From NCBI GenBank assembly GCA_902537235.1, contig CACBAO010000018.1, forward strand, positions 1 to 35,241: a DNA stretch of 35,241 nucleotides, in the 5' to 3' direction. The notes beneath the pieces were generated by a model. It was not told where the DNA came from and did not search any database. It saw only the letters and a program-made list of their open reading frames with translations. Within the stretch, counting starts at the first letter, position 1. Each line of letters opens with the position of its first letter. A program made the translations under genes and the position numbers. This DNA comes from an uncultured Alphaproteobacteria bacterium. GTDB taxonomy: Bacteria > Pseudomonadota > Alphaproteobacteria > Rhodobacterales > Rhodobacteraceae. Shown here piece by piece: positions 28,200-32,992 of the stretch.

Positions 28200-29600
28200 C
28201 TAAATAGGACTATTCTTATTTACGGAAACCTTTTCTTCCAAAACCTTTGCAAAGGCTAGGAGTTTGTCTTCCTGCCTTGGCTTACTCATTATTTGAATTC
28301 CAACAGGTAACCCATGACTAGAAAAGCCAACTGGAAGAGAAATAATCGGACACGAAGTAAGGGTCAACGCAAACGTAATTGCGAACCAATCAATATATGT
28401 TTTACATACGACCCCATCTATTTCTTTTACAAAGGGAGTTTCAATATCAAACGGTAAAACGGAACATGTTGGACAGATCAAAAAATCGTACTCTTCAAAA
28501 AATCTATCAACTTTTATAAAAAGGTCCTGCCTGATTTTCTCTGCGGTTATTATTTCATCATTCGACGCCTCAAAACCAACCTCTATATTTTTCACAATAT
28601 CCACCAGAATTTCATCTCTTTTGCTCTTATAGAGATCACCCAACATATAGGCCATTAATAAACCTCTTAGTGTATGAAAACTTTCTATCGCACCGTTAAA
28701 ATCGGGTATATCACTCCCTACCTCACAGCCAATAGTTTTTAAGTGTGGAAATACTTTTCTAAAGATACTTCTAACCTCTTGTTGAACAGGGACCAAACCT
28801 AAGTCTTCCGTAACGGCTACTTTTGCCGGTAAGTCAAAAGCATCAACGGCTTCAAGAAAAGAACTACATGTATGATCAAAAGATAATGGATCAGTTTTGC
28901 AATAGCCAGACATGGCATCAAGCATTAGACCGATATCTTTTACACATCTTGCCAGAGGACCTTCGACCCACAGTGGGTCAAATCTATTATAACGAAGACC
29001 TCTCGGAACAACTCCAATGCTAGGTCGTAAGCCAACAATATTATTGAAACTAGCAGGAGTTCTAAGACTTCCACCTAAGTCATTACCTGTGGCTAGCCAA
29101 ACCTGTTTTGTAGCTAAAGCAACTGAGGAACCTCCAGATGAACCACCGGCGATTTTATTATTGTTAAAGGGGTTTTTTGTAACCCCGTATACTGGATTAA
29201 AGGTGTGCCCCCCTGCCCATTCTGGAACATTTGATTTAGCCACAGGGAGTGCACCATTTTGTTCTAAGCGGGCAATTGTTGAGTCTGATTTTGGTGGAAT
29301 ATTATTACTAAATATTTTTGAGCCAAATGTAGTAGGAACTCCTGCTACATCATTATAATCCTTAACTGCTATTGGTAGTCCTAAAAGACTTTTTTTGTTT
29401 TGTCTCTCACTATCAATATTGATATTTTTTGCTTTTATGAGAGCCTTGTCATAAAAAGTGTAGGGTAGCGCATTAACTTGTTCATCCACTTCTATATGCC
29501 GTTCTTGTGAGGCTTTTATAAGCTCAGAACTACTTACTTCCCTTTTTCTAATTAAATCTACTGCTTCAAAAGCATACTTTTGTATTAACTCATTCCCCAT
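28200..29600 (-). CDS. Amidase signature family enzyme
   Basis: The 466-residue protein hydrolyses an amide, most likely in the cytoplasm. The amidase triad is complete: Lys80 in PIAVKD, Ser155 in AGGSSGGSS, and Ser178 in NDLGGSLRTPAS. The substrate is unknown; the family includes glutamyl-tRNA amidotransferase subunit A, but no gatB or gatC is near and the sequence around NDLGGSL departs from the usual TDTGGSIR, so a catabolic or detoxifying amidase is more likely. It follows the short-chain dehydrogenase gene by 10 bases on the same strand and may be the last gene of that operon. Confidence 0.9.
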   Translation of the reverse strand: MGNELIQKYAFEAVDLIRKREVSSSELIKASQERHIEVDEQVNALPYTFYDKALIKAKNINIDSERQNKKSLLGLPIAVKDYNDVAGVPTTFGSKIFSNNIPPKSDSTIARLEQNGALPVAKSNVPEWAGGHTFNPVYGVTKNPFNNNKIAGGSSGGSSVALATKQVWLATGNDLGGSLRTPASFNNIVGLRPSIGVVPRGLRYNRFDPLWVEGPLARCVKDIGLMLDAMSGYCKTDPLSFDHTCSSFLEAVDAFDLPAKVAVTEDLGLVPVQQEVRSIFRKVFPHLKTIGCEVGSDIPDFNGAIESFHTLRGLLMAYMLGDLYKSKRDEILVDIVKNIEVGFEASNDEIITAEKIRQDLFIKVDRFFEEYDFLICPTCSVLPFDIETPFVKEIDGVVCKTYIDWFAITFALTLTSCPIISLPVGFSSHGLPVGIQIMSKPRQEDKLLAFAKVLEEKVSVNKNSPI

Positions 29601-29610
29601 ATTTTGACCC

Positions 29611-30336
29611 CTAGCTATTGGTAAACTCTATAACTTTTTTCATTTGGGATACATTTATTTCGTCAAAAACCATGCCTTTCTCTTCATCTAGCAAATAATT
29701 TACTAATTTTGCTATATCATGTGGCTCAATAGCATTATCTTCACTTTTCCCAGGCCGAAAATTTTTATCATCAAAAAATTTTCCTCTTACCATACCTGGA
29801 TTTATTACTGTAACGAATATATTATTCTTTGCTGTTTCCTCTCTGATTGATTGAGCAAATCCACGCAAACCGAATTTTGTAGCCGAATAAACAGATCCTT
29901 TTTGCCCTCCCTTTAGGCCGGCTTCAGAACCAATTAATATTAATTTTCCATTATCTATTTTCTTTAAATGAGGTAACACGGCCTTCGCTGATACGATAAC
30001 CGAAAGTAAATTAACATCTAGCATGGCTTTTATTTTCGATAAAGGAAGGTTCTCTATATTGGAAAATTCTCCAACCCCGGCACAATGCACCAAACAAAAA
30101 ATCTCTTCATTATTCCTTACAATGTTTGACAGTGTCGCCTCTAGTAGTTCAGTATTTTGAAGGTCTAGAATATGATGAATATAGTTTTCCTTTTTTTCAT
30201 CCAAAGAAGGAACTTTTCTACCTATACCTATCACCGTAAAACCACTGTTAAGCAAAAGTGTTGATACAGCCTCCCCAATTGTGCCGGTCGATCCTATGAC
30301 AATGACTTTTTTAATACTATCTCCTAATTTTCTCAA
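29611..30336 (-). CDS. Short-chain dehydrogenase/reductase (SDR)
   Basis: This NAD(P)-dependent oxidoreductase of about 240 residues shows the cofactor loop VIGSTGTIGEAVS, HCAGVGEF in place of the usual NNAG region, and the active-site strand ILIGSEAGLKGG followed by YSATKFGLRGFAQS with the catalytic Tyr-x-x-x-Lys. VINPGMVRGKFF follows. No substrate can be named. The start is uncertain. TTG at 30336 overlaps the previous stop as TTGA, and another TTG lies at 30342, but neither has a ribosome site; an ideal AGGAG (30321-30325) instead precedes ATT at 30315, which would start the protein at KKVIVIGSTG. It belongs to the operon of the radical SAM protein upstream. Confidence 0.9.
   Translation of the reverse strand: MRKLGDSIKKVIVIGSTGTIGEAVSTLLLNSGFTVIGIGRKVPSLDEKKENYIHHILDLQNTELLEATLSNIVRNNEEIFCLVHCAGVGEFSNIENLPLSKIKAMLDVNLLSVIVSAKAVLPHLKKIDNGKLILIGSEAGLKGGQKGSVYSATKFGLRGFAQSIREETAKNNIFVTVINPGMVRGKFFDDKNFRPGKSEDNAIEPHDIAKLVNYLLDEEKGMVFDEINVSQMKKVIEFTNS
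30321..30325 (-). promoter_or_regulatory. Strong ribosome site in front of an ATT codon in the SDR gene
   Basis: On the minus strand AGGAG is followed by five bases and then ATT (30315-30313), with AAA AAA GTC after it. Translation from here would begin exactly where SDR proteins usually do. No ATG, GTG or TTG lies at a good distance from this site. Confidence 0.45.
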
Positions 30337-31322
30337 CCACAAGAAAAGAACTTTCTTGCGTCACAATACTTCATAAGCTCTAATCTACAAAATTCATTCA
30401 TCTCATTTTCTATCGACTGATCGTAAGAAATGATCCCTCTATCATTTGATCTTAAAAATGATAATTCTTCGCTATTTGGATAATATTGCAGTAATTTATT
30501 GAAAAAACTTGTAGGAAATCTTAGCGATCCAAAAGAAACCGAATGGATGTTTTCCTCTTTGATTTCTTTAAAGATATTTGCAAATAAGTCAGCGTATTGA
30601 GCCTTCCAATTATTACAATATATCAATGGATCAAACCTCAATCCAATCCTCCATCCTTTATCTTCTAGGTATTTCATGTTTTTTATCCGGGCAGACACTG
30701 AAGGAGCTTTTTTGTCCAAAATCTTTGCTAAGGCCTCCGGCATGAGACTATACGCTACAATACAATTTGCTAGTGGATTATGCTTTCTAAATACAGTGTT
30801 ATTGATACTTTTTGTCCTTATTTCGAATAGGACCTTTTTATACCGACTAAAAAAGGGAACAAAATCATTTATGAAATTAGTTATTGGCTCCATAGCCAAA
30901 GAGTCGCAATCATAGCCCGTAAAAAACGTCATTTTTTTCTCTTTATGTTTTTTTATAGTCTTTTCGATTTCATTCTGATAGTCATCAAAATTTACAAAGA
31001 CTAGATAATTTGCTGAATTATACATGCCTTGTAAAAAACAATAAGAGCAATCGTATAAGCAATTGTACATGTGAGAGAAATAATAATTGTTTTGATCTCC
31101 AATACCAAATCCCTCGGGTGCATCAAGAACAAATCCTTTTTGTTTTTTTGCAAGAATTAAAGCAGGGTTAGTTTTCTGAATCCTGAAATTCTGGTTTGAA
31201 GGATTAAATACCTCTCCAAATCTTTTGATAGTTGTGACTTTTGCATGTCTAAACTTTGAAATAATTTCTTGCGCTTTTTTAGTACCGATAATTTCATCTT
31301 CTGCGTAAATAGTATCAACCAT
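30333..31322 (-). CDS. Radical SAM protein of the spore photoproduct lyase (SPL) family
   Basis: The 329-residue protein has a CxxxCxxC iron-sulfur motif in YNCLYDCSYCFLQGMY (Cys88, Cys92, Cys95), the spacing and flanks found in the SPL family, and a following TIM-barrel-like region with TGYDCDSLAMEP and LFEIRTKS and LRFDPLIY. B. subtilis SplB repairs spore photoproduct in DNA, but many proteins of this family occur in organisms that make no spores and have no known function. Whether the hydrogen-donor cysteine of SplB (Cys141) has an equivalent is unclear by eye; Cys139 lies near but perhaps out of register. It sits 3 bases downstream of a nucleosidase gene and overlaps the SDR gene. Confidence 0.85.
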   Translation of the reverse strand: MVDTIYAEDEIIGTKKAQEIISKFRHAKVTTIKRFGEVFNPSNQNFRIQKTNPALILAKKQKGFVLDAPEGFGIGDQNNYYFSHMYNCLYDCSYCFLQGMYNSANYLVFVNFDDYQNEIEKTIKKHKEKKMTFFTGYDCDSLAMEPITNFINDFVPFFSRYKKVLFEIRTKSINNTVFRKHNPLANCIVAYSLMPEALAKILDKKAPSVSARIKNMKYLEDKGWRIGLRFDPLIYCNNWKAQYADLFANIFKEIKEENIHSVSFGSLRFPTSFFNKLLQYYPNSEELSFLRSNDRGIISYDQSIENEMNEFCRLELMKYCDARKFFSCG

Positions 31323-31325
31323 GTT

Positions 31326-32156
31326 TCATCTCATAAGATTATCTGAAAATTTCTTTAAAATTTGAGAAGCTGTCATTCTTTGTCCAATCTCCTCTAAAGG
31401 ATTTCTCTGTGGAAATCTAGCTTGCCATTGAGTCAAGTATTTTCGCAGAGTTACCTTTTGACTAAATGTAAATTTTTTCTGCAAACATATTTCATCAAAA
31501 TATTTGGGATCTCTTAGTTGTAGAAAGAGAATTTTCTGTAAATCGAGTAAATTTTCCAAAACTTTTTCTATAAATTGAATTTTTTTGGAAATTAGTATTT
31601 CTACCCTATTTTTGTCGATTTTAGATAAGTCTGTTCCAGGTATATCTGAAATTATTTTCAAAACAGATACGAGCTCATAGGGTGCAATTTTTTTTGCGAA
31701 GCTAAAGAAACCATAACCCTCCATATCGTAAACGGCATCATTTTCAAAAAGTTTTTCAGGTTTGTTGACCGTTATCAAATTACAGCGTTCAATATTATTA
31801 TTCTTAAAAGTGGACGGTGACGGATAATAGTTATCTTGAAAATCACTTGATGTTATTTTATCTATTTGGATCAGCTCTCCAACCTTAAAGTTTCGGCTCC
31901 CAACTATTCCAAAATTTATCCATATAGTATTATATGAGGCATCGCTTTTTACATATAAGTAACTTGTAGCTGCAACCGCATTTAATTGTCCGATCCCTGA
32001 AAGAATAAGCCACATATCTAAATCTTTATTTTTATAAACCGGGAAAGGCGTAGTCGCTACCCTCTTCATAGCATAGTTTTTAATTATTTCCTCAGCTTCT
32101 CCTTTTAATGCAATCACCCACCTAACCGATAATCCTTCAAAATTTTTTTCAATCAC
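31326..32156 (-). CDS. MTA/SAH nucleosidase-like protein (phosphorylase superfamily) with a C-terminal extension
   Basis: The first 200 or so residues resemble 5'-methylthioadenosine/S-adenosylhomocysteine nucleosidase, which cleaves adenine from such nucleosides and from 5'-deoxyadenosine. Candidate active-site residues are in place: Glu20 in ALKGEAEEI, Glu146 in VYDMEGYG for ribose binding, and Asp171 in LKIISD for proton donation; INFGIVGSRNFKVGEL is a family loop. The total of 276 residues exceeds the usual 230, and the tail beyond about 205 is basic and shows no known domain. The start is GTG at 32156 sharing one base with the glycosyltransferase stop (TAGTG). A full-length metabolic MTAN is only one option; the adjacent radical SAM gene suggests a linked role. 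Confidence 0.8.
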   Translation of the reverse strand: MIEKNFEGLSVRWVIALKGEAEEIIKNYAMKRVATTPFPVYKNKDLDMWLILSGIGQLNAVAATSYLYVKSDASYNTIWINFGIVGSRNFKVGELIQIDKITSSDFQDNYYPSPSTFKNNNIERCNLITVNKPEKLFENDAVYDMEGYGFFSFAKKIAPYELVSVLKIISDIPGTDLSKIDKNRVEILISKKIQFIEKVLENLLDLQKILFLQLRDPKYFDEICLQKKFTFSQKVTLRKYLTQWQARFPQRNPLEEIGQRMTASQILKKFSDNLMR

Positions 32157-32992
32157 TAGTCTGCTTCCCAGTACTTTTGTTTTTCTAAATACTTATTGTA
32201 AGTAGATGTATTTGATCTCTTCTTCGCTCCTTGTATTAATATTTTAATTTTCTTTAGTAGCATACTCTTTGTTAACTGTCGCTGCCATTCATCCAAAACT
32301 GACGACCTTAACAAGTTTTCTAACGCTTGAACTCTAAACCTATCCATGCCCCAGTACTTTTTTGATAATTGATCATTATGCCCACCATTTTTAATCGTAA
32401 GTTTTTGATCAACAAAATTTACTGGATATTTACAACAAAAACGCAACCAAAAATCATAATCTTCGCAAACGTCTAAAGACTCGTCGAAAAGGCCAATATC
32501 ATCAAAAACCTTTTTTTTAATAAGTACACTACTTGGGGAAATACAACAGCGTGGTAAGCAATTTTCAAAAATAAAACCCCCTCGTTTTTTATGAATTTCC
32601 TTCTGATTTAAAAAAATCTTATTTCTGTACCATATTTCGTCGGTGTGGGATAAATTCACAGATAATTTATCTCTAGAAATACTCTTAACTTGTTCCTCAA
32701 GCTTGCGTTTGTGCCATCGATCGTCTGAGTCTAAAAAAGCGATCCAATTACCTGATGCCTCTCGTATTCCAAAATTTCTAGCTGCACTTACGCCCTGCTT
32801 TTTCTGGATTAAAATCTTTACAAACTTAAAGTGCTTAGCAACCATTTCCGTGGTGTTATCCTCAGAGTTATTATCTACCAGAATGATTTCTAACGGTTGA
32901 AAAGTCTGAATTGAAATAGATTTAATTGCCTTTAGTACAAAATCTACTCTATTGAATGTAGGAACTACTACCGAAACGTTAAAGCCTTCCAT
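32156..32992 (-). CDS. Family 2 glycosyltransferase
   Basis: The protein of about 278 residues has the GT-A fold of family 2: VSVVVPTFNR at residues 6-15, IILVDNNSEDNT near 37, GVSAARNFGI near 67, the nucleotide-sugar/metal motif FLDSDDRW (residues 87-93), and CEDYDFWLRFCCKYP as the probable catalytic-base region. HTDEIW and GGHNDQLSKKYWGMDRFR are distinctive and I associate them with a tightly conserved subgroup. No membrane segment remains with this start. The frame continues open to an ATG at 33079, but the extra stretch is not typical and the ATG at 32992 places the first strand as usual. It heads a minus-strand operon; the 118-base gap to the divergent TVP38-like gene shows no convincing promoter. 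Confidence 0.85.
   Translation of the reverse strand: MEGFNVSVVVPTFNRVDFVLKAIKSISIQTFQPLEIILVDNNSEDNTTEMVAKHFKFVKILIQKKQGVSAARNFGIREASGNWIAFLDSDDRWHKRKLEEQVKSISRDKLSVNLSHTDEIWYRNKIFLNQKEIHKKRGGFIFENCLPRCCISPSSVLIKKKVFDDIGLFDESLDVCEDYDFWLRFCCKYPVNFVDQKLTIKNGGHNDQLSKKYWGMDRFRVQALENLLRSSVLDEWQRQLTKSMLLKKIKILIQGAKKRSNTSTYNKYLEKQKYWEAD

What the first reader, a model, noticed from the sequence alone, without database searches (positions are those of the whole stretch)
29611..32992. Unassigned four-gene set: glycosyltransferase, nucleosidase, SPL-family radical SAM protein and SDR
Four minus-strand genes are packed with 1-base overlap, a 3-base gap and a 4-base overlap, a strong sign of one transcript. 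A radical SAM enzyme beside an MTA/SAH-type nucleosidase has two sensible readings. The radical SAM protein may attach a 5'-deoxyadenosyl group that the nucleosidase then cleaves to leave a ribosyl unit, as in HpnH/HpnG of hopanoid synthesis. Or the nucleosidase may clear 5'-deoxyadenosine or MTA to relieve product inhibition. The glycosyltransferase and SDR would then modify a small molecule or lipid. SPL-family proteins outside spore formers have no settled role, and I know of no published pathway with this set. I recall the glycosyltransferase's HTDEIW and GGHNDQLSKKY segments from a narrow conserved subgroup, which would fit a fixed function.
Basis: partly seen in the sequence, partly recalled or inferred. 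Interest (0 to 1): 0.72.

Follow-up and report, generated by a model that had tools for sequence, protein, structure and literature searches.

The report
Radical-SAM, nucleosidase, reductase, glycosyltransferase gene module
Four neighbouring genes in a marine bacterium form a conserved enzyme set built around a relative of a DNA-repair enzyme that lacks key repair residues, so it probably makes or modifies a small molecule, although what it acts on is still unknown.

Summary
The four-gene set is real and behaves as a module. In 80 loci (best 80 of 133 relatives found by a GTDB contig scan) GT-NUC-SPL-SDR is complete and contiguous in 64, with differing flanks. Gammaproteobacteria split it, yet 10 of 10 such genomes tested keep the nucleosidase elsewhere and 7 of 10 the glycosyltransferase. 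In 398 phylum genomes, cassette-level matches to SPL, NUC and GT appeared only in the window's genome (few candidates scored per genome). One Fusobacterium record has NUC and SPL in one 623-aa ORF, followed by an SDR. The SPL-like enzyme has the SPL fold (TM 0.83), but catalytic Cys141 is Tyr in 81 of 81 sequences, and seven residues around SplB R305/Y306 are missing in 29 of 29. Relatives also occur in records from human faeces. UV-lesion repair is therefore unlikely. Best reading: a SAM-consuming radical SAM enzyme with its own 5'-deoxyadenosine nucleosidase, a reductase and, in many lineages, a glycosyltransferase, acting on an unidentified substrate.

The parts
32156..32992 (-). GT: GT2-family glycosyltransferase, 278 aa
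   Evidence: PF00535; D86-S87-D88-D89, E175-D176 and GGH residues invariant in 17-row alignment A6
31326..32156 (-). NUC: MTAN-fold nucleosidase with C-terminal helical stretch, 276 aa
   Evidence: Foldseek to MTA/SAH nucleosidases, TM 0.48-0.70 in the 50 rows listed; E20, E146, D171 kept in 79, 78 and 78 of 80
32097..32099 (-). NUC E20 (aligns with the E. coli MTAN Glu12 position; numbering recalled)
31719..31721 (-). NUC E146 of the DME motif (ribose-binding position, recalled)
31644..31646 (-). NUC D171 (aligns with the MTAN Asp197 position; numbering recalled)
31326..31499 (-). NUC C-terminal helical stretch (about residues 220-276), kept in three loci where catalytic residues or most of the catalytic part are lost
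   Evidence: AlphaFold secondary structure; L099, L105 and L199
30333..31322 (-). SPL: SPL-fold radical SAM enzyme, 329 aa
   Evidence: PF20903; TM 0.83 to spore photoproduct lyase 4fhc
31038..31061 (-). CX3CX2C [4Fe-4S] motif (C88, C92, C95)
   Evidence: 81 of 81
31035..31037 (-). F96, at the position of B. subtilis SPL Tyr99
   Evidence: F in 81 of 81; Y in the three oral/gut relatives
30912..30914 (-). Y137, at the position of the catalytic Cys141 of B. subtilis SPL
   Evidence: Y in 81 of 81 and in 29 of 29 module rows of a second alignment
30906..30908 (-). C139, a cysteine two residues on, at SplB Ser143
   Evidence: C in 81 of 81; C in 25 and S in 1 of 26 cassette rows, T/T/A in the oral/gut relatives
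29611..30336 (-). SDR: short-chain dehydrogenase/reductase; start uncertain (30342, 30336 or 30315)
   Evidence: PF00106; N111, S139, Y152, K156 invariant, R42 nearly so, in 24-row alignment A7; start codons read
28200..29600 (-). Amidase, 10 bases downstream and co-directional; a local neighbour, probably not part of the module
   Evidence: PF01425; in 12 of 80 loci

Best explanation
The genes encode a self-contained modification module. Inferred steps: (1) the SPL-fold enzyme cleaves SAM to a 5'-deoxyadenosyl radical that attacks a small, polar, non-DNA substrate. (2) The dedicated nucleosidase, joined to SPL by fusion or held by its C-terminal helical stretch, cuts 5'-dAdo to adenine and 5-deoxyribose, removing an inhibitor. 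(3) The SDR, probably NADPH-dependent, reduces the product. (4) In many Proteobacteria and one Myxococcota record the GT2 enzyme then glycosylates it. Shown here: the module, its conservation, one NUC-SPL fused ORF, predicted folds and residue changes. Not shown: substrate, order of steps, chemistry, binding of NUC to SPL.
For: GT-NUC-SPL-SDR complete and contiguous in 64 of 80 loci; NUC-SPL adjacent in 68, SPL-SDR in 78; at 60% SPL identity 9 of 12 clusters hold a complete block. Flanks differ between lineages. Split loci keep the partners: NUC elsewhere in 10 of 10 and GT (over 340 bits) in 7 of 10 gammaproteobacterial genomes tested, NUC and GT next to each other in 4 of those 7. In 398 phylum genomes cassette-level matches appeared only in the window's genome. 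NUC-SPL in one ORF, then SDR, in Fusobacterium. Cys141 to Tyr and Tyr99 to Phe; in B. subtilis the C141A and Y99F mutants give about one 5'-dAdo per repair, read there as no SAM regeneration (PMC3742179, passages). Gap at SplB G304-K310 in 29 of 29 rows; a beta-hairpin near the pocket helps flip the lesion out of DNA (PMC6268316, passage). MTAN catalytic residues kept in 78 of 80 or more; two are lost in L099 and L105, and most of the catalytic part in L199, while SPL and SDR stay, as expected if another nucleosidase can clear 5'-dAdo. 5'-dAdo inhibits radical SAM enzymes (PMC8102628, abstract start in the listing).
Against: No substrate evidence. A general nucleosidase could do the clearing: PF01048 proteins were found in 18 of 21 genomes, the window's own included. 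NUC is very divergent from MTANs, which could mean a larger substrate than 5'-dAdo. In the oral/gut relatives Tyr99 is kept, so loss of SAM recycling there rests on Cys141 alone. PMC3742179 itself says SAM recycling by SPL is not firmly established. Some NUCs lack the C-terminal stretch (L015; L115). A cassette-level SDR was not found in 3 of 8 genomes, so the reductase step is not universal. The fusion was seen in one record only.
Confidence: 0.5

Rival explanations
1. HpnH/HpnG-like: the SPL-fold enzyme adds the 5'-deoxyadenosyl radical to an unsaturated acceptor, NUC removes adenine from the adduct, SDR reduces the ribosyl group to an open polyol, and GT glycosylates it.
For: Same set of chemistries as the hopanoid side-chain pathway (radical SAM, nucleosidase, reduction, glycosylation; recalled). 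NUC diverges from known MTANs and shares an ORF with SPL in one record. SDR keeps its active-site residues and an Arg that suggests NADPH use (inference).
Against: No SPL-fold enzyme is known to me to add the adenosyl group. The model is closer to SPL (TM 0.83) than to the adenosylating MqnE (0.46-0.48 by query length). NUC catalytic residues are lost in L099 and L105 although the other three genes remain, which should break an obligatory step.
Confidence: 0.2
2. A DNA or RNA photolesion repair enzyme, with NUC clearing 5'-dAdo; GT and SDR incidental or protective.
For: SPL family and predicted fold; many carriers are marine bacteria (record titles; habitat partly inferred).
Against: Cys141 replaced, hairpin region shortened; relatives in a Fusobacterium record and in human-faecal records (that these hosts are oral and gut anaerobes away from UV is recalled or inferred); GT is kept in 7 of 10 genomes where the genes are split; photolyase-family matches are already in the genome (2 for PF03441).
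Confidence: 0.1
3. A nucleic-acid modification module (for example a hypermodified tRNA or DNA base, with a radical step, reduction and glycosylation).
For: Spore photoproduct lyase acts on thymine dinucleotides; GT plus radical SAM would fit a hypermodified base (inference only).
Against: Shortened hairpin; net charge of SPL runs from -7 to +8 in the 8 module sequences computed, no shared positive charge; PHROGs gives only weak or generic matches, and no viral-contig relative of SPL was found, although 2 of 50,697 phage-collection records hold one, which I take for bacterial DNA.
Confidence: 0.1
4. A disposal pathway: SDR and GT deal with the 5-deoxyribose made by NUC rather than with an SPL product.
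For: 5-deoxyribose is formed from toxic 5'-dAdo and is salvaged in bacteria (PMC6079011, abstract start in the listing); SDR could reduce an aldose (inference).
Against: SDR and GT stay where NUC has lost catalytic residues (L099, L105).
Confidence: 0.1

Closest known systems
Spore photoproduct lyase (SplB; TIGR04070, PF20903)
   Same: Predicted fold over the full length (TM 0.83), CX3CX2C motif, Tyr97 and Lys175 positions
   Different: Cys141 is Tyr, Tyr99 is Phe (in the 26 cassette rows), 7-residue gap at SplB G304-K310; 81.8 bits against a 400-bit cut-off; separate clade, 100/99 support, with one canonical SplB in the tree
Spore photoproduct lyase family protein (TIGR03886; Deinococcus, Aureimonas, Roseomonas records so annotated)
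   Same: SPL superfamily outside spore formers
   Different: Glu at the Cys141 position in 4 of the 5 plasmid-record relatives aligned (the fifth, a second Roseomonas protein, has Cys) and in 4 of 4 unnamed relatives; the window protein scores 81 bits against 437.55; separate clade
MTA/SAH nucleosidase (Pfs/MTAN) and futalosine hydrolase
   Same: Predicted fold and catalytic residues
   Different: 30.4 bits against 161 for the only NCBIfam hit at E<=0.001; extra C-terminal helical stretch
HpnH/HpnG (hopanoid side chain)
   Same: Pairing of a radical SAM enzyme and a nucleosidase, with GT and reduction steps (recalled)
   Different: No HpnH or HpnG model among the NCBIfam hits of SPL and NUC at E<=0.001
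Arsenosugar pathway (ArsS; TIGR04283 glycosyltransferase)
   Same: Radical SAM plus glycosyltransferase set (recalled)
   Different: GT scores 63.4 against 182; the only NCBIfam hits of the radical SAM protein are the two SPL models

Membership tests
Spore photoproduct lyase | Radical SAM CX3CX2C motif | tested here: met
   81 of 81
Spore photoproduct lyase | SPL fold and Pfam PF20903 | tested here: met
   59.7 bits, cut-off 27; model TM 0.83
Spore photoproduct lyase | Equivalog score TIGR04070 | tested here: not met
   81.8 against 400
Spore photoproduct lyase | H-donor Cys141 | tested here: not met
   Tyr in 81 of 81 and 29 of 29
Spore photoproduct lyase | Tyr99 of the radical transfer chain | tested here: not met
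   Phe in 81 of 81; Tyr kept in the 3 oral/gut relatives
Spore photoproduct lyase | Lesion-flipping beta-hairpin (that it holds SplB R305 and Y306 is recalled) | tested here: not met
   G304-K310 gapped in 29 of 29 rows, by sequence alignment only
Spore photoproduct lyase | Repair of spore photoproduct in DNA | not testable with these tools
   needs an assay
TIGR03886 SPL family protein | Curated score | tested here: not met
   81 against 437.55
MTA/SAH nucleosidase | Fold | tested here: met
   Foldseek on the model
MTA/SAH nucleosidase | Catalytic Glu, Glu, Asp | tested here: met
   79, 78 and 78 of 80; L099 and L105 lack the last two, L077 is truncated before the first
MTA/SAH nucleosidase | Equivalog score | tested here: not met
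   NF005522 30.4 against 161
HpnH/HpnG hopanoid pathway | HpnH-type radical SAM and HpnG | tested here: not met
   no such model among the NCBIfam hits of SPL or NUC at E<=0.001
HpnH/HpnG hopanoid pathway | Squalene-hopene cyclase in the genome | not tested
Arsenosugar pathway | TIGR04283 glycosyltransferase score | tested here: not met
   63.4 against 182
Arsenosugar pathway | ArsS radical SAM protein | tested here: not met
   only SPL models hit at E<=0.001
Anti-phage defence systems | PADLOC models | tested here: not met
   0 hits for four proteins at E<=0.01

The most novel reading that the evidence does not exclude
A new class of radical-SAM machine: an SPL-fold enzyme turned from DNA repair into a C-C bond forming adenosyltransferase, fused or docked to its own nucleosidase, so that SAM's ribose is built into a metabolite or lipid that is then reduced and glycosylated, in marine bacteria, methanotrophs and human-associated anaerobes.
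Probability: 0.17. Interest if true: 0.9.

Novelty: new variant of a known kind. Interest (0 to 1): 0.68.

Why it matters
It sets apart a clade of SPL-fold enzymes that lack the known catalytic Cys of spore photoproduct lyase, gives it a recurring set of partners in records from Proteobacteria, Myxococcota, Chlamydiota, Planctomycetota and Fusobacteriota, and makes the open question of what SPL relatives do outside spores testable with three or four purified proteins. It also warns that naming these genes spore photoproduct lyase would mislead.

Tried and rejected
Rejected: UV repair (catalytic Cys lost, hairpin region shortened, relatives in human-associated bacteria). Rejected: hopanoid or arsenosugar membership (NCBIfam scores). 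Rejected: a phage-borne or defence role (no viral-contig relative; no PADLOC hit; weak or generic PHROGs hits). Against that: 2 of 50,697 phage-collection records hold an SPL relative. Both are marked UNVERIFIED and I take them for bacterial DNA, because L199 has neighbours that look like glycerol kinase and GreA (my reading, not a database result). Plasmid records: 7 and 10 of 72,556 matched, all distant except the Fusobacterium one. Neighbour genes were read for added pathway steps; I saw none shared across lineages. Net charge as a DNA-binding hint gave nothing. The promoter scan found fewer sites than shuffles (15 against a mean of 19.1). Literature: nine searches showed no paper on this set in the rows listed; (the lyase with SAR116) found 0 papers. 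Only open-licence PubMed Central papers were searched and for the broad queries only the top rows were seen, so this is not proof of absence.

Limits: one search returned the best 80 of 133 relatives found through two short peptide patterns, so distant relatives are under-sampled; many loci come from incomplete single-cell or metagenome genomes. Searches scored at most 6 candidates per genome in the rows I could see, so a GT or NUC in other genomes could have been missed, GT above all. The tree used 35 rows and one canonical SplB, with long branches to the outside rows, and its bootstrap had not settled. Gene-distance correlations (0.87-0.94 over 32 representatives) are not corrected for the species tree. 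Of 12 gammaproteobacterial loci 10 were tested for unlinked partners (L101 and L114 were not). The SDR was sought in 8 genomes only. NUC counts cover 80 sequences: the window, 68 of 80 loci, 9 unlinked gammaproteobacterial copies and 2 oral/gut ones; L199's remnant was left out of that count and is told apart. The fusion rests on one record.


Full report
What is there. Four minus-strand ORFs lie at 29611-32992: GT (32156-32992), NUC (31326-32156), SPL (30333-31322) and SDR (29611-30336). Pfam and NCBIfam place them as GT2, a very divergent nucleosidase, an SPL-superfamily radical SAM protein far below the equivalog cut-offs, and a classical SDR. An amidase follows 10 bases after the SDR but was found only in the 12 loci nearest the window.

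Genome. The window is contig C18 of a 1.92-Mb, 59-contig assembly, 80.55% complete. The nearest named relatives are uncultured Alphaproteobacteria (one titled Rhodobacteraceae-MED-G56); the wider set includes many SAR116 records.

Conservation. A scan of GTDB contigs gave 133 relatives, of which 80 were kept. Scripts called ORFs and classified them with profiles grown from the window proteins. Complete contiguous GT-NUC-SPL-SDR: 64 of 80; NUC next to SPL: 68; SPL next to SDR: 78. At 90, 80, 70 and 60% SPL identity there are 44, 30, 20 and 12 clusters, with complete blocks in 33, 19, 15 and 9. The 16 incomplete loci are 12 gammaproteobacterial ones (most titled as Methylococcales or its genera) with SPL-SDR only, a truncated contig (L077), Chlamydiae (L092, no GT beside it), Candidatus Uabimicrobium (L109, SDR about 2.8 kb upstream of NUC-SPL) and Rickettsiales MED657 (L115, no SDR beside SPL). 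Two unnamed relatives (L015: GT-NUC-SPL; L016: NUC-SPL) lack the adjacent SDR. Flanking genes differ between lineages.

Co-retention when unlinked. In 13 genomes searched, 13 have a NUC; three of these were already adjacent to SPL, so 10 of 10 gammaproteobacterial genomes keep NUC away from the SPL locus. GT at over 340 bits is in 7 of those 10 and in Uabimicrobium, 8 of 13 in all. NUC and GT are next to each other in four (G460, G463, G464, G465), on one contig about 4 and 10 kb apart in two more (G461, G457), and on separate contigs in G459. In 398 genomes drawn across the phylum, cassette-level matches to SPL, NUC and GT appeared only in the window's genome; four others have distant SPL relatives (48-59 bits) and two have GTs at 175-177 bits. 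Searches scored at most 6 candidates per genome in the rows shown, so this is weaker for GT. In 61 relatives SPL was found in 17 (one a contig-edge fragment) and NUC in 18, with none in the 15 genomes of other genera of the family. The SDR was sought in 8 genomes: 249.6-360.8 bits in five, at most 154.4 in G044, G058 and G469.

Fusion. In a 2.1-Mb Fusobacterium vincentii record, listed as a plasmid but chromosome-sized, one 623-aa ORF carries NUC then SPL, followed by an SDR. I saw this in one record only. Two records from human faecal samples, labelled bacteriophage, hold NUC-SPL-SDR (L200) and SDR, a 160-aa NUC remnant, SPL (L199). Their SPLs fall in the same group as the window's, split from SplB and annotated SPL-family proteins with 100/99 support.

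SPL active site. Against a full-length Bacillus velezensis SplB, C91, C95, C98 and Tyr97 are kept. Cys141 is Tyr in all 29 module rows aligned; Tyr99 is Phe in 26 and Tyr in the 3 oral/gut rows; Ser143 is Cys in 25 of 26 cassette rows, Ser in one and T/T/A in oral/gut; Ala235 is Asp in all 29; G304-K310 is a gap in all 29. The larger set agrees: Y137, C139 and F96 in 81 of 81. Passages of PMC3742179 give Cys141 as the likely H donor with Tyr99 next in the chain, and about one 5'-dAdo per repair in C141A and Y99F mutants; the same paper says SAM recycling still needs firm proof. A passage of PMC6268316 states that a beta-hairpin helps flip the lesion out of DNA; that the gap falls on that hairpin (R304/Y305 in the Geobacillus numbering) is my recollection of the structure paper, which was not held. 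The AlphaFold model (pLDDT 88.3) has TM 0.81-0.84 to six SPL entries and 0.50 or less, by query length, to the other chains listed.

NUC. The model (pLDDT 91.9) matches MTANs and futalosine hydrolase. E20, E146 and D171 are kept in 79, 78 and 78 of 80 sequences; L099 and L105 have lost the last two while SPL, SDR and GT motifs are present (in L099 my text search did not find the GT ED motif). In L199 most of the catalytic domain is gone but the C-terminal stretch remains. I read this as: the C-terminal stretch serves SPL, and the nucleosidase activity can be supplied by another enzyme. It is three loci, so it is a hint and not proof; L015 and L115 lack the stretch.

SDR and GT. The SDR has an invariant N-S-Y-K set and a nearly invariant Arg that suggests NADPH use (inference). 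The GT keeps DSDD, ED and GGH residues; its best solved-structure match is chondroitin synthase. The acceptor is unknown.

Reading. The set is a functional module; NUC-SPL is its core, usually with SDR. A role in UV repair is unlikely. The product-clearing reading of the nucleosidase is favoured over an adenosyl-transfer pathway, at about 0.5 against 0.2, mainly because residues tied to SAM recycling are gone and NUC catalysis can be lost. The substrate remains open.

Noticed in passing
G012:C2, G006:C6, G005:C13, G008:C1: A second short nucleosidase-like ORF (181-208 aa) lies about 4-6 kb from a 396-405 aa protein with a partial photolyase/cryptochrome match.
   Followed up: no
window:30313-30342 -: The SDR may start at an ATT codon (30315) behind AGGAG, which would give an MKKVIVIG start; two upstream TTG codons compete.
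   Followed up: partly
L201:2299-4420 +: A Roseomonas plasmid carries two adjacent SPL-family genes next to repAB; the first has Glu, the second Cys, at the Cys141 position.
   Followed up: partly
L198, L199, L200: A Fusobacterium record of 2.1 Mb is labelled a plasmid, and two faecal records labelled bacteriophage look like bacterial DNA.
   Followed up: partly
L099, L105: Nucleosidases in two SAR116 loci have lost two catalytic residues but stay in the block.
   Followed up: yes
window:28200-29600 -: An amidase is 10 bases downstream of the SDR, found only in the 12 loci nearest the window.
   Followed up: partly
window:33111-33773 +: A VTT-domain membrane protein is divergently transcribed from GT, in 12 of 80 loci.
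   Followed up: no
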